Positions 10,681 to 41,200 of a stretch of 64,000 nucleotides of DNA are shown here, piece after piece. The notes beneath the pieces were generated by a model. That model saw only the letters and a program-made list of their open reading frames with translations, was not told the DNA's origin and made no database searches. The translations under genes and the position numbers were made by a program. The stretch's first letter is position 1. Each line of letters opens with the position of its first letter. This DNA is from Dactylonectria macrodidyma (taxonomy: Eukaryota; Ascomycota; Sordariomycetes; Hypocreales; Nectriaceae): assembly GCA_020744425.1 (NCBI GenBank), contig JAGMUV010000004.1, positions 1,488,001 through 1,552,000 on the forward strand, in the 5' to 3' direction.

Positions 10681-11882
10681 CTCGCCCATTGGATAGTATT
10701 CTATACATATGTTTTAGTCTAGGGCTAGCAGTCGAGACATCCGCCGATAGCTGATAACAGGCTATAGCAGGGGTCACCGTCTAGACTATTATTCAAATCT
10801 AGGCTCTCTTCTACAATGTAGACTGAAGAATAAACCCTAAGCGATGACGTCAAGGTCGAAGTCTAGCCTCTTATGAGTCTGTCGAATTCACTTTCATCAC
10901 CCATCACAATCAACTGGAGCGAGACTTGGTAGAGTGCAACAGCTATAGTGCTCCTTTTCTAACGTTTTCAAAACCATTCATGTGTTGCGGTCCCTCTGGG
11001 GTCGGTCGTTATTAAATACACAGTAAATGCATCGGCGATAAAATTGGTACTTGCCTCTTCGTAACCTCTGTGCCTTGCTTTTTCCCTAAGTCAATCCGAC
11101 GTTTGTACTAATAGGTTACCCGCCTATTTCATTGACAGCTTAGGTGATTATGAGTTTACCCTCGTTTCGACTGAGCCCATGCTTTCTAGCTCGACGTAGC
11201 TCTAGTATGCAATAGAGTTCAACAACTTACCCCGGATTCTATCGTGTAATGTGATGCAGGTTCATCTTCGCGTCACTTGGGTTCCGTTGGTAATACAATA
11301 GTTTCATGATTCACGTGTACTCAAACATTCGATGCCTCCTTTAAGAAAATCTTGGGAGTAGGAGGGTTACTTACCTCTGCCCGAAATTTCCTGTATGACA
11401 TATGTCTTGGACAGAAGCCTTGCTCTCAAAAACAGTTCTGGAATTTCACAAGGAATATAGATAACGAAATCTGTGGACAAATGTTGGGCGACGCTTCTCA
11501 AGATTTGAGCCAGGATCTGCTATGGCGTAATAGAGACCAGATTGTGGGGCTACTTCCTCAGAGGCGGAGAAGCCCTACTGTTGAAGTCTGCAAAATAGGA
11601 GCCCCATGCAGATTGCTGGGATTATCATGTGTTATACTGTAGCCACCAACACTTACCTAGTCAATGATCAGAAAGCAAGGTATGAATCCATGAGCAAAAT
11701 GTCTGCCGGTCAACATTAAGCCATACTTTTTCTGGTTGGATTGTCGCAGCTAAGTTTAGACAAAACAAACCCAGCACATTCAAATACTGTACTCCGTACG
11801 GACGTACATAGTCAGGAGATGTGCGGGGCTTCCAGGGGTCCTTGAAACGAGACTAGTGTAGTCCAAGCGCCTCCTTGAGGCT
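10681..11882. other. intergenic, no gene seen
   Basis: No supported gene. The 96-codon frame at about 11352-11642 has no start ATG and no recognisable content. Confidence 0.4.
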
Positions 11883-26689: not shown

Positions 26690-26805
26690 CGGATCCCTAG
26701 GGATAAATAGCTGGTTTTCTTCCTGCTAGACAGAGAGAAAAGATAAGATCTTCCATCGTCACCAAGCTGTCTTAACTATTCTATCCTGTCTGATATGTAT
26801 GATAC
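26690..26805 (+). repeat. LTR-like fragment, plus orientation
   Basis: Contains AAGATCTTCCATCGTCACCA and GCTGTCTTAACTATTCTATC, the inverted counterpart of 25625-25690. It runs into the miniature LTR element at 26806, which interrupts it. Confidence 0.4.
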
Positions 26806-27261
26806 TGTTGGTGGCTATAGCGCACATTAATCCATGTAATCTGTATGGAGCTCCTATTTTGCAGATTTCAACAGTTATGAGCCCGGATGGTCGAACGGCT
26901 TAGGAAATAGTCACCCGGAGACCAGTAACTTCCGCTACGATAAGATAATAATAGCACTACCCAGAAAGTCGATAGTTTGAATCTCGCTAAGAGTAATAGT
27001 GCGGACCGTATCTATGGAGCCAGAGCTCCTAGGTTATGAAGAAAAATAAAAGAATCCCTCAAAGGAACGGTAGTAGGCCAACAGCTCTAGCAATGTATGC
27101 TAACAATCGACAAAAGTCAAAGAACTTCAGCGACAAATAGCCCCCTAAATCAGTAGGCCTAGGGGATCTGAGAGCCCTAGAGCCTAGGGGGTGTGTTAGT
27201 GGCTATAGCGCACATTAATCCATGCAATCTGTATAGAGCTCCTATTTTGCAGATTTCAACA
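26806..27261 (+). mobile_element. TRIM-like miniature LTR element 1 (456 bp)
   Basis: Two 68-bp direct repeats, 26806-26873 and 27194-27261, both TGTT...CAACA, differ only at three transition sites. The element is flanked by the perfect 5-bp duplication GATAC (26801-26805 and 27262-27266). Directly after the left LTR is GTTATGAGCCCGG (26874-26886), complementary to the anticodon arm of initiator tRNA-Met. A polypurine-like tract (AGCCTAGGGGGTG) abuts the right LTR. The 320-bp interior has no coding capacity but contains an A-box-like TGGTCGAACGG at 26888 and a B-box-like GTTTGAATC further on. These are the parts of a terminal-repeat retrotransposon in miniature. It must be mobilised in trans, plausibly by Copia elements that use the same primer site. 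Confidence 0.9.
26874..26886 (+). promoter_or_regulatory. primer-binding site for initiator tRNA-Met half (TRIM 1)
   Basis: GTTATGAGCCCGG abuts the LTR with zero spacing. Its first 11 bases are the reverse complement of GGGCTCATAAC, the anticodon stem-loop of eukaryotic initiator tRNA. Drosophila copia is known to prime from a cleaved 5' half of this tRNA. Confidence 0.75.
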
Positions 27262-27266
27262 GATAC

Positions 27267-27480
27267 TAATGCTAGTATTAACACTCTCGTCTCCTCTATC
27301 TCTTCTAGTCTCAAGGGCTATATAAGTAAGTGCAACAGCCGTGTTCCTAGGCTAACCTATACGTAATATAAGATAGCTTAAAGCGGGTTTTTAAGTAATA
27401 AACTTAGGATTTATATTAGTAAAGTAGTTAGATATATTTACTAAGTTATTAAAGGATTATATTATATAATAGTTAATATA
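27267..27480 (-). mobile_element. Gypsy element, left fragment (RT/RNase H junction)
   Basis: On the minus strand this continues the reverse-transcriptase frame that stops at 37013 (LTNLI...DITIKNTFNKIKEIIL), reading ILTII then a Gypsy-like RNase H start. The two halves are separated only by the MITE/hAT/Copia nest with a TA duplication at the joint. It is truncated before integrase. Confidence 0.6.
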
Positions 27481-27482
27481 TA

Positions 27483-27505
27483 ACGTACTTAATAAGCATG
27501 CGCTG
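27483..27505. mobile_element. MITE, left 23 bp (split by hAT insertion)
   Basis: The left end ACGTACTTAATAAGCATGCG is inverted at 36991-37010. The flanking dinucleotide TA is at 27481-27482 and 37011-37012. The rest of the element continues at 36609. Rejoined, it is 425 bp with ~43-bp inverted ends carrying one mismatch, like a non-autonomous Tc1/mariner (Fot1/pogo-type) element. Confidence 0.75.
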
Positions 27506-27936
27506 CAGGCTGGCGATCAATTCAATTCCATCAATTTCGCCTTCACGTGGCGTTGCGTTGATAACTTACTTAGCATTTAGTCCGTAGAGTTAAACCACCG
27601 CATCTCCAAATTGAATTGATGGCGTTGAATTGAAGAGGTTGAACTGTATACGCACTCAGATCCTATCGCTTACTCCCTAGCGTCTTAGCCATCCTCCTCT
27701 GCCTCTTATATAATACTATTCCTAACCTCTCTTAATATATTAATTAATATATCTATAGTATTGATTAGGCCATTCCATACTTATAACCTAAGTATCTGTA
27801 TTATTCTTATTATACTAGCTTCTAATTGAGTTTACTATAGTAAAACTATTTGCTTAGTAATACTAAATAATTATTCGCACTCTATAGATATAAGTAGTAC
27901 TAATAGTAAGTTAAGAGCTATTTATAATAGCTAAGG

Positions 27937-28432
27937 TGTAACGATCCACACTTCGCATTACGTCTCCTAGCCCGTCAGGCCAAAAGATAAGTCTATAATC
28001 ATAATGGTAGCAATCATAGGTGTGGATAACAGCTATTAAATAGGGTCTCATGCACGCCCGGCTATCCAGGTCGTAACACGATGTCTCCCCTCCCAGTGGC
28101 TTGTCCTCAAGCCCACTAGTCCGGGCGCTGACAAGGGTGAACAGGCCTTATCATCTGCGCGCTAGCTGCCCTACCCCGACTAGCCGATCGGGCCTAGTCT
28201 GAGCCAGTAGTGGGATTCCTGTCAAAGCTAGTGACCCTAGAATCGAACTCACGACCTCTTATCGCGTTGACCCGCATCATGTGATTATTGTGTAACGATC
28301 CACACTTCGCATTACGTCTCCTAGCCCGTCAGGCCAAAAGATAAGTCTATAATCACAATGGTAGCAATCATAGGTGTGGATAACAGCTATTAAATAGGGT
28401 CTTATGCACGCCCGGCTATCCAGGTCGTAACA
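27937..28432 (-). mobile_element. TRIM-like miniature LTR element 2 (496 bp)
   Basis: Direct repeats of 142 bp at 27937-28078 and 28291-28432 start TGTAACGA and end TCGTAACA. They differ at two transition sites. The perfect 5-bp duplication TAAGG lies at 27932-27936 and 28433-28437. The minus strand is probably the sense strand, because on it a purine run GGGAGGGGAGACA precedes the 3' LTR. The minus-strand leader carries GAGTTCGATTC (28240-28250), a near-perfect tRNA B box preceded by the variable-loop-like AGGTC. There is no coding capacity and no sequence similarity to TRIM 1 or 3. It lies inside the hAT element but is itself far less mutated than its surroundings, so it is probably a recent insertion. 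Confidence 0.88.
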
Positions 28433-28437
28433 TAAGG

Positions 28438-30430
28438 GTAATCTTTCTATCTCTTTTACTAATATTAAATAAGATTAATAATAAAAGGGTCATTCTTAGT
28501 ATTAGGACTTAATAGCTAGTAATTATATTTATTATAGTCTGCATTTAGTAAACTTTCTAAAGAAGAACATCTGCCTATTAGAGATGAAGTCCTATAAGCT
28601 TAGTATCTCTTAAGCGCACTTATTGCCTTTAAGTGCTTAAATAGAGGTTCTTTATCTAATACTAAAAGATTCAGTAGTAATTTATACTCTTCATCCTATA
28701 GAGTCCTTACGATTCTTTTTACCTTATAAAGCTATAGTAACTATGCTTTATTAGTCCACATATTCTTAAAATATCCCTAATATAAGACTGGATTTAGAAT
28801 AGTAGAAGCATAGTATGCTAATATCTTATCTAGCTTTATATAATACTTATTCAACTTATCCCACCCTAGGTTAATATTTATCTTAAAGTGCTCTAGATCT
28901 GGGTAGTTCTCTACTACTGCTTTCTACTCTTCTAGACTGTTTATTAGGAATTTGTAAGTTAAGGCAACATCCTACATATTACTATATGCCTTAATATAGC
29001 CTCCTTTTTATACTTAGTTCTAAGCGTTGCCTTCAAGTATCTAGAGTGCTTCCTTAAAGTTAAAGAGCATCTTATCCATTAACTTAATAACTTTCTAATC
29101 TTTCTTACTAAGAAGACTCTCCTTCTGAAAATAGAGGAGTATCTCTTCCTTTCTTCTAACCCTATTATAATATTCTTTATTAAATTTAAGTATAACCTTC
29201 TTAACTAAGTCTTTAAGAAATAGATGTAATATAAGACTGTACTGCATTATATATAGAGTTAATAATTAGTGAGTCTGGTTATTATAGATAATATTAATAG
29301 GCTTCTTTATTTAAATCTTTAAATTATCTGAATATTAAAAGAATTCTTCTTATAGTATATAGAGATAGTATATTAGCTTATTGGATTAATAGATCTAATA
29401 GACTAGGTTATAGAGCTTTCTAATAGGGCCTTTCTTTTACTAGATTTTATACTAAGTAGTGCTAAACCCAGACTCCCTATCAATCTCTAATTTAAAAGCC
29501 TCAGCCTTATATCTAAATAATAGAGCTTTTATTACTAAGTTAAGAATATAGTTAAAACATCGCACTCTCTATTTCTTTAGATTAAAATCCAGTACTCTTA
29601 CAATCTCCTCTATTACTATATCCATATTACTAGCATTATTAAGTATAATATACCCCACTCTATTAAGTATCTTATAGCTCTTTAAGATCTTAAGGATCTA
29701 GGCTATAATATTCTCCGCTGAATAGTAATTCTTTAACTCTAATAGGCTAAGGACTAGCTTTAATAGAACTCCATTTTTATTAATATAAAAACAGATAATC
29801 CTATATAAAACGTACTAATTCCTTAAGCGCTAACTATTAAATATAATATAGATTTGACTTAGGACGCTCTTTAAGTAGTTAATTATATATGTCTTTTATT
29901 AAATATAAAGGTTAATAATTCGCCTTTAAATAGTATTATAAAAGATATAAGCATTCATTACTATAACTAATAGGTTTAAGTATTTAAATATATATTAAAG
30001 CTAGTAATACTTAGGCTAGTAAAAAGAGATATTAGTATTAACTACTTACTTAAAAAGCAGTCTCTAAAAGTAATCCCTATTAAAGCATTAAATAAGAGTA
30101 TTTATAATAGCTTACTCTTTAGGGTCTAAAGTATTAAGATTTAATATCTCTATAATGTTCCTTAAGGGAGTCTTTTCCTTCATCCCCTTCCTAAGAGCGG
30201 GCAGCCTCTTCCCAGTCCTATTAATAAGCTTGTGTTCTTTAAATAGATGCTTTTCGATATTCTGAGTACTAATAGTAGAGTAGTCTAACATTCTAGACTT
30301 TAGCTTCTTAAAGTAAGGCTTATAAACCCATTTCCTCTTAGTAAGAGAATTATTACATTAAATATTAAAACCATACTACTAGACCTAGGACGTCTACTTA
30401 CTAGTACGCTTAGAAATCATAAAGGCTAAG
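28438..30430 (-). pseudogene. RIP-degraded hAT transposase
   Basis: The minus-strand frame from about 30420 reads RTSK then, after stops, KWVYKPYFKKL and TQNIEKHLFKEHKLINRTGK, i.e. a BED-type zinc finger with the H-x-EHK region. LNTLDPKE follows, then downstream the catalytic-region pattern of fungal hAT transposases. Stops replace Trp and Gln codons throughout. Confidence 0.7.
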
Positions 30431-30917
30431 AACTTATTCTATAAAAAGATTTTCTATTTATTTAATAAAGAATCTAAGTTTATAAATAGTATATTAGTTA
30501 AGTTACTATCTAAAGTTTATTAGTACTTTATAAGTAGGTTAGTATCCATTTTAATTATAAGAAAGGGATATAATATTTTATTAAAAGGTTTATTTACTAT
30601 ATAATAATAAAGAATATAGTATATATGCATTTATTAAGCTTAAGTACTAAATATATTAATATATATATAAATAATTTAAAGTAAAAAGTACTAGTAATAA
30701 AGTCTGATAGATATGATTTTCAGGGCTGCGAATACTACCTTAGACTACTACCCTTCTTAACCGTTTTAACTAGTGGTTAACATTAAAGCTATTGCGATAG
30801 AATTGAGGCTATTAATATTAAGGCGAGATTAAATTAATTGAATTAATGCACAGACCTTCCACTTTAATAATATTAAAATGGTAGAGGTGGAGGTGGAATT
30901 GATCGCCAGCCTGATGC

Positions 30918-31140
30918 TGTTAGATTTAAGCAGCATGCATAGCACCTTAGTCATTAAGAGCCCACATATATGTATATTATGCATATCATCATCTAGGCTA
31001 ACCCCGCAGCAGTCAGGGGTATTATATATAGCATTCACTGCCTTCCTATTTAGGCTATGCTCAGCGTGCTCTCAGTAGTCATACGCCTAACCGAAGTCAC
31101 CTAATCATATGCATGACTATGCGCACAATCTATTCTAACA
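30918..31140 (-). repeat. 3' LTR of Copia element (left copy)
   Basis: 223 bp, TGTTAG...TAACA, GC-normal along its whole length. Confidence 0.9.
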
Positions 31141-31819
31141 CGCCCCTTCAGCTTCGCAGTCCCTCTACTAAGCTATACTTTACTTTATAGCTTCTTTACC
31201 TTTTCCTTATTTCTTCTCTATTTAATCTTATCTATTAAGTTAATTAGCTTTAACTGCTTAAAGAAGCTCGAGTGACTATCTTCTAATAGGTTTTTTATTA
31301 ATCTATTAGTAAGTATTTAAGTAGTAAGTATATAAATAATATTAATTCTCTCTTTAATAATTTCTTAGTATAGCTAATAGTTATAAATATTAATATACTT
31401 AAGCTTTATATATAATTATACTAGTTCTATAGTAATAAGGCAGATAGTCTGTTTATTATTATATTTGATTATAATCCTTACTACTATTATAGTAGTTTAG
31501 CGAGCTATCGAAGAGTTTAGGTTAACCTTTAATATAAAGATAAGTTAGCTTATAAAGAGAGCTTCTTTAATTGCTTAAGAAAGCGCTAGGAGCTCTGCCT
31601 TTATTATTAATATTATAACTATATCTTGCTTATTAGTTCTCTAAGAAGTAATCCTACTAAAGAGCTTTATAATAAATACCTAAGAACTCTAATGATCTAT
31701 TAAGTTATTAATAAAGCTAGTATTTAAGGTAACTTATAGTCTATCTTCTTTACTACTAGCTATAGCTCTATATTTAAAACAGAGACCCTTTATTTATATA
31801 AGGTATTATAAGGCTCTAT

Positions 31820-32310
31820 CTATAGCTCTTTATTATTATAGTCTAGGGTTCTAATTAAACCTAGCTAGTTAGCTTATAGTAAAAGCTATATTTAGTTAAG
31901 TCATTACTACTATATATATAATAGTACTAATCTTCCTAAAGTATAGGTTAATACTACTAGGGCTTATTATTATATTATATAATAGAAGTTCTTTATAGAT
32001 CATTAGGGTTACTAATATTAGATTCAGTAAGTCTTTAGAAAGCAAATAGCGCATTTTATTAATATAAATAGCTTATAATAACTATAGCTTTCTTATTCTA
32101 TAATCCTAAATAACCTTAATCCCTAAGAACTATTAAAATAGCTTACTACCTATAATATTATATATTTTCTATAGTTCTACTATTAGTAATATTACCTTAT
32201 TCTTAATATACTTAAAGAAATAGAGAATATAGTTATCTATATAGAAGAAGAAGATAATATCTCTATAAAGCTAATAGCAGTCCTCGCTAGGCACTTAGCG
32301 AAAGCCCGCT
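31820..32310 (-). pseudogene. Copia reverse transcriptase, degraded
   Basis: Minus-strand residues of the Copia RT palm (YIDN for YIDD) and the downstream segments FLGIKVI and VMT-LNIAFTIS are legible between RIP stops. Confidence 0.75.
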
Positions 32311-35300
32311 TATAGTAAGCCCTTTTTAAAGTGCTTTTACTATAGTAATAGTAATTGCTAAAGACTGTAAAGAGCTTTCTATAGCTTTAGGATCCTTCCT
32401 AGCTTCCTATATCCTATAGGCATTTACATATAAATATCCTTATCTAGCTTTATATATATAAATATATTAACTATATTATATTATAGTATATTATAGTTAA
32501 ATCAGTTAGCTAAGGCTATAAGGGTTCTAAATAATATACTTACTAAAGTTATTATATAGGTCTTTTAGCTATTAATCGCTTACTAGTCTTTATATATAAT
32601 AAGGCATGCTTTTATCTTTATAAATCTACTATACTTATTAAGTTTATAAATATAGACTTAGTAATAGCTAAGTACTTATTAACTATTTACTAAGGCTTTT
32701 ATAACTTTAATTTATAATTAAGAATCTATATAACTTTATAAGTATATTCTTTCTACTTTAAGAAGAGTATTCTAATAAGGATAGCTTACTATTATTATAT
32801 ATAAGCTAGGAAGGGTCTATAATAAGCATTAAAGTATACTAATACATAATAACCTTTCCCCCCTAGATATAAGGCTCTTTATTTATAAAGGCTTTTATAT
32901 TATTACTAATATAAGGCTCTCTAATCTCAGAGGCTTTTATATACTTACATTCTTTATAATCTAAGAGCAGACTTATCTTCCTCTGCTAAGTGCTTGCTTA
33001 GAGCTAGCCAGGCCTTCGCTAAACACTCTGCAGTTACTTATGCAATACTTAGGTAACTAAAGCCTCCTAGCTAGGAATGCAGCCTTAAATGACTCGTGCT
33101 ACTTTACTAGTCTATTAGCAGAGCCTCATTAGACCTTCTGAGACTCCCTTTATCTGCCTAAGAATTAGTATATAAAGCTCTCTATCTTTAGAGCATATTA
33201 TATATCTGCTTTTAACCCTTAGTCAGCCGCTTCCCCACGCCCCTTTATACTTAGCCTAGAGGCTAAGGTATGGAAAAATGCGACTAGTAGTAATGGAGGA
33301 GGTATTAGAAGAGGTTTAAACTTAGCTATAGTATATTCATACGCCCCTTCAGATTCAGGCACTCTACTAATAGCCTTATAATCACTTAGTAAGTATTCTC
33401 TAAATAGATTATTATTATCTTCTTCTATTACTTTATTTACTTCTTTATTAAATAATTATAATAGCTATTGCTTAGCTTATGCTTATATTACTATAAGTTC
33501 TTTAATATATTATTAAATAGCTTTAAGGTTCTATTACTTTAAATTATCTTAAAGACTCTCTATCTATTTATTAAATAGATACTACTTATTAAATAAAATA
33601 TCTCTTATTATAAAAACTTCCTTATATAAAGGGTTCTAGACTCTAAATAAGTTACTTAATATATAGCCTACTAAGAAACTAATCTATGCTTTTAGAGCCT
33701 GCTTTTAAAGCCGGTTTCTTTATAATTATATATCTATAGTTAATATAAAGACCTTATAGCTATATGCTTAAAGGTATGAGAAGTCGGGTTTTACTAAGTG
33801 ATTACTATAGAATTAGTAATAGAATAACTTATATAGAATCTTTCTATTTCTATAAATTAAAAGTATATAGTTATAAAAGTAAGTAATAGCCTTAATTAAT
33901 TCTAGCTATAAGTATTCTAATAACTTAGCTCCTATATGCATTATATAGCTTTTTAATATAATAATTATAGTAATGTATTCTGCCCCTCTGTTTTATACTT
34001 AAGTATTTAGAGCTAAGAGCTTAGTATATATTCCTTAAATAGTTAGTAGCTTAGCGATTTATAAGTATATTTCTATTATTTTATTATTATACTTAAATAT
34101 TTTAACCTTAATAGAGTATTATACTTTTAATATCTTAAGGAAGTGAATAATTACTATATAAATAGTGAGTATTAAGTGATTATTAGTATAATAGTCTTAG
34201 GAATACCCTATTACTCAGTCTATAAAGATCTATATAGATATATAGCCTGTATAGCCTAGGATCATTAAATAGAAATCTAGAGCTATTCATTCTCCTGGTT
34301 TTACTTATACTATTACTTCTTAAAGAGCTCTATAAACCGCTTAATAAGCCTTCACTATACTATATATATTGCAGTTAATAGTTATTATTTATTAAAGGCC
34401 TTTAGGCTCTTCTATCTTCAGCCTAACGCCTCTTATAGCTATTATAAGGCAATATAAGGAGTCTAGGCTTAGATATCTAAGTCTTTAATACTAAGTCATT
34501 ATATCTTCTAGCATTAGCTTTCTAAGAGTCTATAATATAAAGTAAGACTTCTTCTATAGTATATTAGCTATTATTACTACTAAGTGCTCTACGACCCTTC
34601 TTTAAGCATTTAGTAAATCTACTACTCTATCTTTCTATTCTAAGACTTATTGCCCTTACTTCTTATTAATAGTACTTAAGAAAGACTTATTTAATCTCTA
34701 TAAATAGTTATTATTTAGTCTAGTATTCTACTAAAGGCCTTACTATCTTAGCTTTAAGAATAAGATGAGGTTTATAGTAAGGGATTTATATAGAGTAATA
34801 TTATAAAGAGTGAGCCTTTTTAGCAAACTATTAGTATTTACTAAAGTAATAGTCACTTTTCTATAGCTATTAATTAGTACTTAAGTAGTTTCTAACTAAA
34901 AGAAATCTCTTAGTAGGGCTGCTTATAGGTTCTTTATTTAGCTTATATCTTAAAAGATATATAAAGTTACTTTTAAATCTAAGAGAATATAGTTCTATAA
35001 TGTATAGTAAATACTAACTATTAATTTAGCATTTATTATATAATTACTAATAATTAGAGCTATGTTTACTATATAAGCACTGACTAATTATAGTCAGGCT
35101 GATTTCTCTAGCTTAATCTTTCTGATCTACCTGACTAAGTTATCTTCATTCTCTTCTAGCCATTTATTAAACCTTTTAATTATATAAGGCTGCGGTTCAA
35201 ACTAGTCAGATCTATTCTTTAAAAAGGTATAGAAGTAATATAAAAGTGAATAGAGTTAATAGTATACTGGGCACTTAGCTTCATTATCTGATCTAATGCT

Positions 35301-36376
35301 CTAACGCTATCTCTTCTTAATAATTATTTATTAAGCACTTACTAAGCTATTAGCTTCTTTTTATATACTTCCTCTACTATAAAAGGCTCCCTAACTCACT
35401 CTTCCTTACTGTAAAGTCTCTAGCCATTTAGTAATCTCTTAGTAAATATTTATTATAACTAGACTGACTATTAAAGTACTTACTTAGACTTAATCTATCT
35501 ATATAACGCTATATATATCAGTCTAAGCCTATAAGTATATTAACTAAAGAGCTATTATAAGGTCTCTAAGCCATTAATTAGGTTCTATTACTTCTTAAAA
35601 GCTAATATCCTAAGCCTTATTAATAGTATTCTACTATCTCTTAAGCCAGTTAGCTATAGTAATATTAGTCTTAATCTTTCCTTAAGGTAGTTCTCTTAGG
35701 ATCTTATAGTATATTTAGCAAGCCCTTTACTTCTATAGTTCGGTTACTAGAGCAAACTTATTATAGATTAACTAAATCTACTTAGGCAAACTAATCTTTA
35801 GCTTATAGTAGTATTAAGAGAGTGGTTTATTAAGCATCTTAAGGACCTAGTTCCTTATATTCTTTATTCTAGTCTAGAATTCCTTATAACGCTTATTATA
35901 GTATTTATAATTAGCCTATAAGGCATTATATACTTAAAGACCCTTCTTAAGCAGCTTACTAATATCTTAAGCTTTTAGCATTATATTATCTTCTTTACTA
36001 AAAGTAGGGTCTTTATTATTAGTTACTATTATAATAGTCTTAGTATAATCGCTAGAAGCTACTAATAACTCAGCGAGCCTTACACAAGTAATTAACACTA
36101 GCTTCTTCTTAAATTAAGTAATATCTAGTAGAATTAGGGCTTTTAAGATTAGCTCTGGTTTATTCTTCTTCTTAGGGTTAAGATAGTCCTAGAGGTCTTT
36201 ATTTATAGCTATAGTCTTTAGAGTCTTGAACCATATAATCCAATCTTTATCTATAACTAGCTTAATACTTATAATAATTATTATACTTTTAGTAACTGCT
36301 TATTAGGCGCTTATAGACAGCCTGCTGCTTAAAGCAGTAATTATTAGTAAATATAATTATATATAAGACTCTTAAT

Positions 36377-36599
36377 TATTAGATTTAGGCAATATATATA
36401 GTACTTTAGTTATTAAGAGCCTATATATATATATATTATATATATTATTATCTAAGCTAATCTTATAGTAATTAGGGGTATTATATATAGTATTCACTAC
36501 CTTCCTATTTAGGCTATACTTAGTATGCCCTCAGTAGTCACACGCCTGACCAAGGTCACTTGATCATATGCATGACTGTGCGCACGATCTATTCTAACA
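36377..36599 (-). repeat. 5' LTR of Copia element (right copy)
   Basis: 223 bp. The first ~130 bp are saturated with C-to-T/G-to-A changes relative to the left LTR, while the last ~85 bp are nearly unchanged. Confidence 0.9.
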
Positions 36600-36608
36600 G
36601 ATGCACTG

Positions 36609-37010
36609 CATCCAAGTATGCGCTGCATTAAGATTTTCACTTTAAATTGCATTTTTAAAATAATTCTTAATAATTCAAATTAAGCCTAAAATAGCTATAA
36701 CTTTATATATAGCTTATTCATTATATATATTATTTTTAAGAATTATTTTAAGTTATATATACTTATAGCGCTAGTAGTATAAAATTCGCACTATTTTTAT
36801 TAATATTTTTATTTATAACTAGCTTAATAATTTTTTTTAAAAGTCTAAAAAAAATACTAGCTTATTAACTTTTTAGTTAAATATCTAAATTAAATCCTTA
36901 AAAATCCTAGACTTATATAACCTATTTTAAAAAATTTAAAGTTTAGCTTTTAAGGTATACAGTATACATGCAGCGCATACTTGGATGCGGCGCATGCTTA
37001 TTAAGTACGT
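36609..37010. mobile_element. MITE, right part
   Basis: Continues the element begun at 27483. The right inverted end contains two ATGCGCYGCAT-type palindromes around ATCCAAGT and closes with TTATTAAGTACGT followed by the TA duplication. Confidence 0.75.
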
Positions 37011-37012
37011 TA

Positions 37013-40000
37013 CTTAAAATAATTTCCTTAATTTTATTAAATGTATTTTTTATAGTAATATCCTATTAGAAGTCTATTCCTTTTTATATAAGGTTAGTAA
37101 GTAATATAATATATTTACTAAACCCTTTAATGAATTTTTAATAATAATTAGTAAATCTAAAGAAGGCTTATACTTTTATAATATTTATTAGTTTTAGCTA
37201 TTTATTAATTATAATAATCTTCTTTAAATCTATTTTAATTTTATTATAAAAGATTATATATCTAAGAAATTCTACTTTTAGAGTATAAAAATAACTTTTC
37301 TTTAGTTTAACTAATAATCTATAGTCTTATAATATATATAGTATTTTATAAATATACTTAGTATATTCTTTTTCTATTTTAAAGAAAATAAGAATATTAT
37401 TTAAATAATATATAATAAATATATTAAAGTATTCTTATAATATATTTTTAATTATTTATTAAAATATAGTTAGTATATTAGTAAGTCTAAAAGGTATAAT
37501 AAGATATTTATATAGTTTAAACTTTATTCTAAAGGCAGTTTTCTATTTATATCCTTTTTTAATATAAATAAGACTATATATATTTTTAAAATTTAGTATT
37601 ATAAAGAACTTCATTCTATAGAGTCAGTTCTTAAGCTTTATAATAAGTAATAATAGGGTTTGATCTTTTAGTATAATATTATTTAAGTAATAATAGTTTA
37701 TAATAAGTTAGAATTTATTATTCTTTTTAAAAATAAATATAATTAGATAGTTAGTTAAGGACTTTAATATTTTAATATATTCTTTATATAGTATATCTTT
37801 AATATATTCTTTAAGTATTTATAATTATATTTTATTAAAGTTAAAAATCTTATAGAATGTAAGTAATGCTCTATTTTTTAATATAATTTTATAGTCCTAT
37901 TAACTAAATTCTAATAATCTTATTTTAAGTTTTTCTATAAAGAGCTTTTTATAAATATAGTATTATACTAATATATTCTTAAGCTTATTATCTTTAGGAT
38001 TTTCTTATTATTCTTTTTTCTATTTCTTAAGGTCTTTATTTATTTCTTTAAACTATTATTAAAGGTATTTAATTATTCTTTAAAGTATGTTTTTCTTACC
38101 TTTCTAATATTTATATTATATTCCTATTAGGAGTAATAAGGTATTTATTATTTCTTTATATAAAGTCTTATTCTTACTATTTTTAAGGGTTAAGATTAAA
38201 GATCTCTCTTTTTTTAAATTACTTTTATTATTATTAAAAAGTATATTATTATTATTAACTAATACTTAGCTAGTTCTTTAGTTAATATATAAGTTATATT
38301 TTCTTAGCTATAAATACTTAAGTATAATATTATAATACTTTATTAAAATAATATTAAGAATAATGCTTTAATTCTTTTTATTAATAAAAACCTTTAAATA
38401 ATTAAGTTCTTTAATAATCTATTTATCTTTATAATTAAATATATTGCCTTTAAGGTTATATAATATATAAGCTTCTTTCTTATACTTTTATAATAACTTT
38501 AGCTTATTAACTACTTTTAGATTAATATAATCTGCTTTAGCTTTACTATCTATTAATATAATAAGTTATATATTATTAACTTATACTTATAGTTTAAGTG
38601 TCTTTCGTTTTATTACTATTTATATTATATATAGAGCTTTTAATAAAGATAATTTCCCTTTTATATTATTACTTATTTATCACTTTTTTATAAATAGTAC
38701 TTATTATTTTTTATTTATAGTATATATATATACTTAGTATAGTTAGCTATTAAGTCTTTTTATTTATTTTATTATATATATTATAGGTTAATCTTAGCTT
38801 AAGTATAAATTAAATAGTCCTCTTTTTAATACTATATAGAGTTTTTAAGTCTTTTAATATATTTTAAAAAGAAGAAATTATTAGAATATTCTAAGACTAT
38901 AATCCTATTAATAGGTTTAAAACTTCTAATTTAATAGCCTTTAATTTTATTATAAAAGTATAGTATAAATACTAAGTAGTCTTCTAATTATATAAGAAAA
39001 TAATTATTTTTCTACTTATTATAAATATATCTTTTATAGTATAAGTTATAGTATAAGATTTATATAAGTTTATAATATTAAAAGTTATTTATTTTAATAT
39101 AAGGATTATTTAGGAATTCTTTTTAAAGTATTTCTTTATTACTTTATACTTTAAGTCTTAATTAAGTATAAATATAGAGATCTTCTTTAGCTTAAGGTTC
39201 TTATCTTTTTTTAACTATTTACTAATATTAATCTTCATTATTTATCTATATGTAGATTCCTTATAAGTCGATTTCTACTATATTCTACTATTCTTTTACT
39301 TCTATTAAGGACTCTTTATACTCCTTATAATAGGGGCTTGCTTATTTATTATTACTACTATTTAGGTATTTATTTATAAGCATAAGGATGAGCTCTAGTT
39401 CTTAACTTAATTATATATTTAAGATATAGTAGGCTTTTAAGTATTATCTGCCTTTAGCTATTCTGCTTTATAAGAGTTCGTAGTGTTTATTAGTACTAGT
39501 GTTTTATTACTTATTACTTTACTTAGGTTTCTTATTATTATAAAGTTTATTTTAAATCTATTTGCCTTTTTTAGAAAATAATACTAAGTATTCATTCTTT
39601 ATATAGCTAACTTATTAGTAATTATAGTTATTATTTATTTATGCAGCTTGAGTCTTAAGTAACTAGAAGGTTATACTAGATGCACTTCTTAGTTAGTTAT
39701 AGTCTACTTTGACTTAGCTTAGCTATCTATTAGGAATTTCCTCTTTAACCTTCTTCTAGTAAGACTTACTATCCTCTGGAATAGGTGTGAATTATATTAT
39801 GCATTTATTGCCTTTTTTAACTATTATAAGGATTTTTCTATTTGCTCTTACTAGAGGTCATTCTTCTAGGATCAGAGTCTATTCCTAAAGCTACTCAGTT
39901 AGGATGATTTATTATAGGAAGTAGAATCCTAATAATAGTTTTAGCTTATATAGCTCGTTCTTAGCTTTTTCCTCTATTTTATATAACTAGCCAGAGTATA

Positions 40001-41200
40001 GTTATAACAATCCTTTAGAAGCGCCAGTTTTATTATAGCCACTTCTAGTTATAATAAGAGTCTTTAATAAATACTAATAATTAGTAAATTAGAAGTTCTT
40101 ACCTTTTAATATAAGCTTATACTTCTAATTTATCTTAAGGCTTTAGCACTTATTCTTAAAGTACTTTATTTTATTATAATTCTAATACTTAACTTTAGAA
40201 TAGTCCTATTAAGCTACTCTAAGTTCTATAAGTCTGGCCTAAGTTCTATAAGAAGTATTTACTTAGTTTTTATCTTTCTAATTATCTTAGTTCTTAAAGT
40301 AATATAGATTATAATTACTACTTTAGTCTCTTTATTAGTTCTTAGCCTTCTCCTTTTATCTTTTATACTATTATTTATTAATTTTAATAGCTATAGTAAT
40401 ATACTTAGTAAGTGTATTAAGTCAGTTAGCTTTATATAACTTATTCTTAACTTCTTCTTTAAGTCTTTAGTAAAAGATTTTTATAAATATATTATTATTC
40501 TATGTGATGGGCTGACCCCAGGAGGGCTAAGCGATAGCTAGCGCAACGGCCACCAGCGCCTACGGCGCTACCCTTTGCTGCTGAGGCAAAAGGATACGTA
40601 TTGATCGATCGCCAGTGCGATCAACTAACTAGCTATACAAGGTCTTCTACAAAGCTAGAGCAAAGCTCTAGCCCATAACATATGCCCCTTCTCCTACTGA
40701 CCTTACTACACATCCCCCAGCTTCTGCATCTCCTGCGTTCTTGCGCCTTATGGATGATTGCCCCTGTAAGCCTAGGTTCGAGGGCGGGACTCGAACCTAT
40801 GACCTTTAGGTTGATCGATCAAATGTGATGGGCTGACCCCAGGAGGGCTAAGCGATAGCTAGCGCAACGGCCACTAGCGCTTACGGCGCTACCCTTTGCT
40901 GCTGAGGCAAAAGGATACGTATTGATCGATCGCTAGTGCGATCAACCAACTAGCTATATAAGGTCTTCTACAAGGCTAGAGCAAAGCTCTAGCCTATAAC
41001 ATTCTATTCTAATTTAAAAGCGACTTATTAGAATATAATAATATAAGTAATAGTAGATCGGATTTATTTAATCTTATAGATCTTAATTATTACTTGCCTT
41101 TCTTTATTAACTATACTAAAAGTGTCTTTAATTACTTTTTTAAAGTTCTTTTAATTTATAAAGATATTAATCGCTATTGAAACCACTGTTCGGACTTTTG
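37013..41200 (-). mobile_element. Ty3/Gypsy retrotransposon, right part (gag and RT), RIP-decayed
   Basis: The minus strand about 37500-37050 reads VPFRLTNILTIF, IIYYLNNILIFF (YLDD region), LLVKLKKSYFYTLKVEFLRY and FTNYY-KFIKGFSKY, the order of a Gypsy reverse transcriptase. Further right (41150-40400, split by TRIM 3) it reads KDTFSIVNKERQ and LKEEVKNKLYKA, a Gypsy gag pattern. No LTR could be delimited. The 5' end lies somewhere right of 41150. AT content is extreme and stops are dense. Confidence 0.8.
40503..41001 (-). mobile_element. TRIM-like miniature LTR element 3 (499 bp)
   Basis: Direct repeats of 178 bp at 40503-40680 and 40824-41001 (TGTGATGGGC...CATAACA and ...TATAACA) differ only at a few, mostly transition, sites. 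The perfect 5-bp duplication TTCTA is at 40498-40502 and 41002-41006. On the minus strand the purine tract AGGAGAAGGGGCA precedes the 3' LTR and the 143-bp interior starts close to AGGTTCGAGTCC (40787-40798), a perfect-looking tRNA B box within the hairpin AGGTTCGAG/CTCGAACCT. It is GC-normal inside a RIP-bleached Gypsy gag, hence young. It has no coding capacity and no similarity to TRIM 1 or 2. Confidence 0.9.

What the first reader, a model, noticed from the sequence alone, without database searches (positions are those of the whole stretch)
26806..41001. Three sequence-unrelated TRIMs share one architecture: LTR, tRNA-like B box in the leader, purine tract, LTR
In the inferred sense orientation each element has a Pol III B-box-like word soon after its 5' LTR: GTTTGAATC in element 1 (with the A-box-like TGGTCGAACGG), GAGTTCGATTC in element 2 and AGGTTCGAGTCC in element 3. 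In 2 and 3 it is preceded by AGGTC, the usual variable-loop sequence, so the leader looks like the 3' half of a tRNA. Known TRIM-type Cassandra elements carry 5S rRNA Pol III promoters in their LTRs. A tRNA-derived internal promoter or packaging/priming signal in fungal TRIMs would be a distinct, possibly undescribed class: small Pol III-transcribed LTR parasites of Copia/Gypsy.
Basis: partly seen in the sequence, partly recalled or inferred. Interest (0 to 1): 0.88.

Follow-up and report, generated by a model that had tools for sequence, protein, structure and literature searches.

The report
Mini retrotransposons with split tRNA promoters
Five families of tiny protein-less LTR retrotransposons in one likely fungal genome carry a tRNA-gene-like B-box sequence downstream of the primer-binding site, which would act with an A-box-like stretch in the LTR or just after it as a split promoter for RNA polymerase III; in the published Helenus elements the tRNA-like part lies inside the LTRs instead.

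Summary
E1, E2 and E3 are real TRIMs: LTR pairs, purine tracts, 5-bp target duplications, solo LTRs elsewhere. After them lies a variable-loop/B-box block, GGTC-N4-GTTCNANTCC. In E2 and E3 it is far above chance (0-1 of 1000 shuffles); the E1 window copy is mutated, but relatives keep it. Two more families turned up: E4 (weaker block) and E5, found through E4, with near-perfect A and B boxes; 11 of 11 E5 copies keep the B box. Leaders of three larger elements lack it, two of them decayed. No tRNA fold is kept, so a DNA-level Pol III promoter is the best reading; no RNA data exist, and A boxes are weak in E2-E4. It is not an undescribed class: Helenus/TRIMp3 (Kojima 2024) are TRIMs with tRNA-derived promoters, also in fungi. 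New here: B box in the internal region, self-priming members, and one B-box module shared by two unlike families.

The parts
26806..26873 (+). E1 5' LTR (68 bp, TGTTGG...TTCAACA); single T4 run at 26857-26860; target duplication GATAC at 26801-26805 and 27262-27266
26874..26884 (+). E1 primer-binding site GTTATGAGCCC, complement of the initiator-Met tRNA anticodon arm (Copia-type half-tRNA site)
   Evidence: sequence; CHGGGCTCATAACCCDG occurs at 6 places in 77 Mb, control 0; that these are iMet genes is general knowledge, not checked; iMet anticodon-loop sites are the dominant type in fungal Helenus (PMC10886601)
26888..26898 (+). E1 A-box-like TGGTCGAACGG (in the leader, not in the LTR)
   Evidence: matrix score 11.5, 26 of 500 shuffles; identical in L052, one change in L050
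26967..26984 (+). E1 B-box block, mutated in this copy (AGTCGATAGTTTGAATCT)
   Evidence: window copy 294 of 1000 shuffles; relatives L049a 0, L050 16, L052 12 of 1000
27180..27193 (+). E1 purine-rich tract GAGCCTAGGGGGTG before the 3' LTR
   Evidence: near-identical in L049b, L050, L051
27194..27261 (+). E1 3' LTR; T4 at 27245-27248
28291..28432 (-). E2 5' LTR (142 bp); target duplication TAAGG (+ strand) at 27932-27936 and 28433-28437
28349..28357 (-). E2 predicted RNA 5' end / self-primer TGTGATTAT (LTR positions 76-84)
   Evidence: 9-nt complement to the leader, 4 of 1000 shuffles; inside a 24-nt run invariant in 8 copies
28326..28339 (-). E2 T4 run (28336-28339) running into A-box-like TGGCCTGACGG (28326-28336)
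   Evidence: A box 7.7, 108 of 500 shuffles: weak
28280..28288 (-). E2 self-priming primer-binding site ATAATCACA, 2 nt after the 5' LTR
28239..28256 (-). E2 variable-loop plus B-box block GGTCGTGAGTTCGATTCT
   Evidence: the 18-mer AGGTCGTGAGTTCGATYC is exact in 8 of 9 full E2 copies
28079..28094 (-). E2 polypurine tract GGGAGGGGAGACATCG, resembling that of the chromovirus in L034/L037 (37 bp at 89%)
27937..28078 (-). E2 3' LTR
40824..41001 (-). E3 5' LTR (178 bp); target duplication TTCTA at 40498-40502 and 41002-41006
40922..40931 (-). E3 predicted RNA 5' end / self-primer GATCGATCAA (LTR positions 71-80)
   Evidence: 10-nt complement to the leader, 1 of 1000 shuffles
40909..40912 (-). E3 only T4 run of the 5' LTR; no A box above chance follows it
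   Evidence: 462 of 500
40813..40822 (-). E3 self-priming primer-binding site TTGATCGATC
40787..40804 (-). E3 variable-loop plus B-box block GGTCATAGGTTCGAGTCC
   Evidence: 22.3, 0 of 1000 shuffles; AAAGGTCNNNNGTTCGANTCC occurs at 3 places in 77 Mb, all E3 copies, control 0
40681..40695 (-). E3 polypurine tract AGGAGAAGGGGCATA
40503..40680 (-). E3 3' LTR

Best explanation
These are TRIMs (LTR retrotransposons of about 0.35-0.5 kb without genes) that are likely transcribed by RNA polymerase III from a tRNA-type promoter whose B box lies in the internal region after the primer site, and would be copied by the proteins of larger Copia or Gypsy elements. Shown: LTR pairs, target duplications, purine tracts, primer sites of known sequence type, and a B-box block after the primer site in five families, weak in E4 and mutated in the window copy of E1. 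Inferred: TFIIIC binds the B box and, with an A-box-like stretch in the LTR (E2, E4, E5: promoter split across the LTR/primer-site boundary) or just inside (E1), places Pol III; E3 has no A box above chance. In E2 and E3 the RNA 5' end, predicted from self-priming complementarity, lies 18-19 nt upstream of the LTR's only T4 run; ending at that run in the 3' LTR would give a terminal repeat R of 22-23 nt, comparable with the 18 bp reported for Cassandra. Reverse transcription would be primed by a tRNA half (Lys in E4/E5, iMet in E1) or by the RNA's own 5' end (E2, E3). Mobilisation in trans is inferred from shared primer-site and purine-tract sequence (E4 with the element at 30918-36599) or purine tract and LTR start (E2 with the Tf1-type chromovirus of L034).
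For: B-box matrix scores and rarity. A prospective hit: L091 was fetched because it matched the LTR end and leader of E4 (query 41-154, L091 1-121; B box outside that match, A box inside it); it held B box GGTCGTATGTTCGATCCC (22.4, L091 145-162) and A box TGGTGTAATGG (12.0, 16 of 500 shuffles). GRTCNNNNGTTCGANNCC is present in 11 of 11 E5 copies that cover the region. E2 18-mer with up to one mismatch: 19 places, 8 exact (all E2), 11 with one mismatch (10 E5 copies, 1 unidentified), control 0. In 8 E2 copies the B-box block (20 nt), the self-primer/T4 block (24 nt) and a TATTTAATA block (18 nt) are among the longest invariant runs. One T4+ run per LTR in each of the TRIM copies examined, 0 in LTRs of 3 larger elements. 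Leaders of the same three elements have no B box. No RNA fold common to the families. Self-priming complements.
Against: No transcript data. A boxes are weak: E2 108, E4 69, E3 462 of 500 shuffles. In E1 the A box sits in the leader, so a Pol III start about 20 nt upstream would lie past the LTR's T4 run and leave no R repeat. A T4 run 18-19 nt after the start in the 5' LTR would have to be read through. Lack of T4 in the internal regions is not unusual (P of none 0.69-0.97 per element). TATA-like TATTTAATA (E2) and TTATATAG (E3) lie upstream of the predicted start and fit Pol II as well. Full E2 copies are 91-96% identical to the window copy (one at 83%) and E5 copies 95-99% to L091, so conservation is weak evidence; 84% of E2 internal columns are invariant anyway, a motif-free run of 24 nt is as long, and two of the 8 copies (L011, L012) are one duplicated insertion. 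Two of the three larger elements that lack the block are RIP-decayed or of unproven coding capacity, and of the third only about 130 nt of leader were read. The window copy of E1 has lost its B box.
Confidence: 0.58

Rival explanations
1. Ordinary Pol II TRIMs: the B-box block is a relic of a captured tRNA or SINE piece that spread between families and does nothing now.
For: TATA-like motifs upstream of the predicted RNA start in E2 and E3; weak A boxes in E2, E3 and E4 and no significant T4 depletion; B box mutated or decayed in the E1 window copy, L016 and L018.
Against: B-box letters kept while the T-stem partner is not; 11 of 11 E5 and 8 of 9 E2 copies keep it, though they are young; leaders of three larger elements lack it; TRIMs of unlike primer classes have it.
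Confidence: 0.27
2. The block acts in the RNA as a tRNA mimic (packaging, primer annealing or nuclear export).
For: Position downstream of the primer site; a strong hairpin in E3 (z -4.3) and a weaker one in E1 copy L050 (z -2.1).
Against: T-stem halves do not pair in E1, E2, E3; 0 tRNAs by ARAGORN in 9 loci, no Rfam tRNA match in 5 loci; no fold beyond shuffles in E2 or E5.
Confidence: 0.07
3. The B box is a TFIIIC-only site (as at the TFIIIC-bound sites of yeasts, recalled) that affects chromatin, clustering or silencing, not transcription.
For: B boxes are much stronger than A boxes in E2 and E3.
Against: Good A box in E5 and fair one in E1; T run directly before the A-box-like stretch in E2, E4 and E5.
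Confidence: 0.08

Closest known systems
Helenus (TRIMs with tRNA-derived sequence in the LTRs; Kojima 2024, PMC10886601)
   Same: Short LTR elements without genes, A/B-box letters kept without a working tRNA, 5-bp target duplications in fungi, anticodon-loop primer sites (E1, E4, E5), several families per genome, solo LTRs, a larger element sharing the ends of the internal region.
   Different: Here the B box is in the internal region after the primer site, once per element, so solo LTRs lack it; E2 and E3 use Tf1-like self-priming, and E2 has a Gypsy-like relative. In the paper fungal Helenus is linked to Copia, its Table 1 lists fungal hosts in Basidiomycota only, and 'self-prim' and 'Ascomycota' do not occur in its text.
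Cassandra and Ajax (5S-derived TRIMs; as described in PMC10886601)
   Same: Pol III-type promoter in a TRIM; Cassandra RNA has an 18-bp terminal repeat, similar to the predicted R here.
   Different: 5S-type promoter inside the LTR; no Rfam family matches the window at its gathering score.
Tf1/sushi-type self-priming chromoviruses
   Same: Leaders of E2 and E3 are complementary to a site in the own LTR. The L034 element, with integrase, Tf2-1-like SH3 and chromo domains, has a 9-nt complement at the same place, seen by eye and not shuffle-tested.
   Different: TRIMs code for nothing and carry the B box; the L034 leader, about 130 nt read, does not.
tRNA-derived SINEs (SINE2)
   Same: A/B-box promoter module in a short non-coding retroelement.
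   Different: LTRs, primer site, purine tract and 5-bp duplications; different copying machinery.

Membership tests
TRIM | Two LTRs, under 1 kb in all, with primer site and polypurine tract | tested here: met
   E1 456, E2 496, E3 499, E4 352 bp; E5 LTR-to-LTR spacing 335-337, its full LTR and purine tract not read
TRIM | Integrase-type target duplication | tested here: met
   Exact 5 bp in 7 of 9 full E2 copies, 16 of 20 fetched E2 solo LTRs, 14 of 16 fetched E1 solo-LTR loci (my reading); E4 ACTTG; E5 not read
Helenus | tRNA-derived sequence with A and B box inside the LTRs | tested here: not met
   B box lies in the internal region in E1-E5; only an A-box-like stretch is in the LTR (E2, E4, E5)
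Helenus | Fungal members: primer site complementary to a tRNA anticodon loop or 3' end, Copia-like | tested here: inconclusive
   Fits E1 (iMet) and E4/E5 (tRNA-Lys gene L083: 12 nt in exon 1, a 13th after splicing); not E2, E3 (self-priming)
TRIMp3 (Pol III-driven TRIMs) | Functional Pol III promoter | not testable with these tools
   Sequence only; no expression data
Cassandra / Ajax | 5S rRNA-derived promoter in the LTR | tested here: not met
   No Rfam match in the window at gathering score; only an unrelated weak match in 5 loci at E up to 5
Tf1-type self-priming | Primer site complementary to a site inside the own LTR | tested here: met
   E2 9 nt (4 of 1000 shuffles; copy L011 6 of 1000), E3 10 nt (1 of 1000), the L022 element 11 nt (1 of 1000); not E1 (956) or E4 (1000 of 1000); the window element 30918-36599 has an AT-only 9 nt (71 of 1000)
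Functional tRNA gene | Cloverleaf | tested here: not met
SINE2 | No LTRs, LINE-type tail | tested here: not met
   LTR pairs and 5-bp duplications

The most novel reading that the evidence does not exclude
A distinct class of Pol III retroparasites: the B box lies outside the LTR, so only complete elements, never solo LTRs, can fire; Pol III start and T-run stop define a tiny R; in E2 and E3 the Pol III RNA folds back on its own 5' end to prime Tf1-style; and one B-box module moves between TRIMs that exploit different hosts (Copia-type E5, Gypsy-type E2), making new parasites by recombination.
Probability: 0.32. Interest if true: 0.78.

Novelty: new variant of a known kind. Interest (0 to 1): 0.57.

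Why it matters
Only Cassandra is a validated Pol III TRIM, according to the Helenus paper. Several unlike families in one genome with the B box outside the LTR, two of them self-priming, would show that Pol III capture arises repeatedly and can serve Gypsy as well as Copia hosts. It also makes a clean test possible: full-length copies should bind TFIIIC, solo LTRs of the same family should not. In a genome with strong RIP-like decay of long elements it suggests why very short parasites do well.

Tried and rejected
Gapped alignment of internal regions to 20 tRNA genes was insensitive (E1 225, E2 26, E3 6 of 400 shuffles); the 18-column matrix replaced it. The idea that T4 runs are depleted from the internal regions failed. 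The idea that LTR-only hits are ends of larger elements failed for the 20 E2 places fetched: single LTRs, 16 with exact duplications. Opposite orientation of E2/E3 was rejected: purine tract and self-priming site fit the minus strand. A tRNA-fold role was rejected. The coding capacity of the RIP-decayed window element 30918-36599 was not established: the longest stop-to-stop frame listed in 28450-40400 is 81 aa; its Copia label rests on primer-site type alone. The coding capacity of the L022 element was not tested beyond frames of at most 81 aa.
Full report
WHAT IS THERE. The window holds three short LTR elements. E1 (26806-27261, +) has 68-bp LTRs, E2 (27937-28432, -) 142-bp LTRs and E3 (40503-41001, -) 178-bp LTRs. 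Each window copy has an exact 5-bp target duplication. In the 77-Mb assembly E1 gives 42 rows, E2 39 rows of which 9 are full-length, E3 17 rows; the tool calls such counts lower bounds. I fetched 20 of 29 LTR-only E2 places and 16 of about 36 LTR-only E1 places. The 20 E2 loci hold a single E2 LTR within about 4 kb (about 2 kb on one side of L045), and 16 of 20 (E2) and 14 of 16 (E1) show exact 5-bp duplications (my reading). So these LTR-only hits are solo LTRs. E1 also occurs as a tandem LTR-internal-LTR-internal-LTR array (L049).

PRIMER SITES. In between lies a primer site. E1 starts with GTTATGAGCCC; its complement is part of CHGGGCTCATAACCCDG, which occurs at 6 places, control 0. That this is the initiator-Met anticodon arm is general knowledge; such sites are the dominant type in fungal Helenus (PMC10886601). 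E2 and E3 leaders are instead complementary to a site in their own LTR: 9 nt (4 of 1000 shuffles) and 10 nt (1 of 1000); E1 and E4 show none (956 and 1000 of 1000). This is the Tf1 manner of priming. A 6.9-kb element in L022 has 11 nt (1 of 1000). The chromovirus of L034/L037 has 9 nt, AGCTTTCAA at LTR position 303, right after its LTR (seen by eye), while the script's best complement is a 10-nt match to another LTR site (7 of 1000). The window element 30918-36599 has an AT-only 9-nt match (71 of 1000). The L034 frame has integrase, Tf2-1-like SH3 and chromo domains, and the E2 purine tract resembles its purine tract and LTR start (37 bp, 89%).

THE B-BOX BLOCK. E2, E3 and the E1 copies L050 and L052 share GGTC-N4-GTTCNANTCC, the letters of tRNA positions 45-62 (E1 copy L049a has the B box without GGTC). 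Matrix scores against 21 own tRNA genes (self scores 15.1-24.9): E3 22.3, E2 12.5 (window) and 19.8 (L011), E1 -2.3 (window), 8.5 (L049a), 8.0 (L050, L052), E4 6.3 (13 of 1000 shuffles). No other site of 15 or more exists in 335 kb. The T-stem partner strand does not pair (read), ARAGORN and Rfam see no tRNA, and no fold is common to the families (E3 alone has a strong hairpin of its own). What is kept is the B-box lettering, as a promoter would need.

TWO MORE FAMILIES. E4 (L019:1297-1648, -) is nested in an E3 copy: 91-bp identical LTRs, duplication ACTTG, primer site ATTAAGAGTCTCA complementary to tRNA-Lys gene L083 (12 nt in exon 1, a 13th after splicing), and the first 11 nt of the primer site and the CTGAAGGGGCG|TGTTAGA purine-tract/LTR junction in common with the larger element at 30918-36599. 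Ten places matched only the LTR end and leader of E4 (query 41-154). I fetched one (L091, 237 nt). It carried, beyond the matched part, GGTCGTATGTTCGATCCC (22.4) and, inside the matched part directly after TTTTT, TGGTGTAATGG, one letter from the A box of the own tRNA-Gly L084. This family, E5, is a TRIM too: LTR-to-LTR spacing 335-337 and 11 copies covering the region at 95-100% identity. GRTCNNNNGTTCGANNCC is in 11 of 11 of them; genome-wide it has 85 sites against 35 for the reversed control, a number of them in tRNA genes. One further site (C4:1651089) lies 89 bp before an E4-type LTR.

A SHARED MODULE. AGGTCGTGAGTTCGATYC with up to one mismatch has 19 places: 8 exact, all E2 copies; 11 with one mismatch, of which 10 are E5 copies and one (C15:172101) is unidentified; control 0. 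The 11th E5 copy, L091 itself, has two mismatches. E2 and E5 differ in LTR and in primer class, so the block was either exchanged between them or taken from one tRNA.

MECHANISM. Shown: anatomy, primer-site complementarity, B-box block, absence of the block from the leaders of three larger elements (two of them decayed or of unproven coding, about 130 nt read of the third). Inferred: a type-2 Pol III promoter whose B box is internal and whose A box is in the LTR (E2, E4, E5) or just inside (E1). In E2 the predicted RNA 5' end is at LTR position 76, the T4 run at 94-97 and the A-box-like stretch from 97; in E3 the 5' end is at 71 and T4 at 90-93. T4 runs occur once per LTR in each TRIM copy examined (E5: in the 50 nt of LTR read), and not in the LTRs of three larger elements. 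A Pol III RNA from this start to the T run of the 3' LTR would have R of 22-23 nt. Problems: A boxes are weak in E2 and E4 and absent in E3; E1's A box is past its LTR, which leaves no R in this model; a T run just after the start must be read through; T4 absence inside is not significant; TATA-like motifs would serve Pol II too; the copies are too alike for a strong conservation test.

COMPARISON. The nearest known kind is Helenus, part of the proposed TRIMp3 (PMC10886601; abstract, introduction, Methods 2.1, all Results, Discussion, legends and tables seen, other passages by search; supplements not seen). It is defined by tRNA-derived sequence inside the LTRs; that was tested here and not met. 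The elements here work like Helenus but are not members as defined. led to that paper. 'TRIMp3' stood in 4 papers, of which the other 3 are medical by title. Two further searches (listings) and passages found by search words in PMC3248453, PMC7014611 and PMC6934838 showed no TRIM with the B box outside the LTR. Subscription papers are not in that library.

Confidence went from 0.60 to 0.58 and the novel case from 0.33 to 0.32 because the larger elements without the block are partly decayed and the E2 conservation includes one duplicated insertion.

Noticed in passing
window 30918-36599 (-): 5.7-kb RIP-decayed element with 223-bp LTRs, target duplication GATGC and tRNA-Lys-type primer site; likely Copia-like relative of the E4 partner.
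   Followed up: partly
L034:5668-8144, L037: Young Tf1-type chromovirus (about 7 kb) with dozens of LTR matches, most at 98-100% identity, despite RIP-like decay of other elements.
   Followed up: partly
L053-L068, window 26801-26805: E1 target duplications look biased to GTNAC-like words (GTTAC, GTAAC, GTACC, GATAC), suggesting a weak palindromic target preference.
   Followed up: no
L049:495-1374: Tandem E1 array with shared middle LTR; tandem arrays are also reported for LTR-11_DR in the Helenus paper and for Cassandra (title of PMC7215508).
   Followed up: no
window 26806-41002: E1 and E2 window copies show no CpA/TpG depletion (1.19, 1.05) beside DNA with 0.43; their small size may keep them under the RIP length threshold (recalled, not tested).
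   Followed up: partly
G000:C15:172101-172118: Single unidentified site one mismatch from the E2 B-box 18-mer: source tRNA gene or a sixth family.
   Followed up: no
window 40773-40799: E3 B box is part of a 10-bp inverted repeat, a strong hairpin private to E3 (z -4.3).
   Followed up: partly
window 11579-11651 (-): Diverged E1 solo LTR (81%).
   Followed up: no
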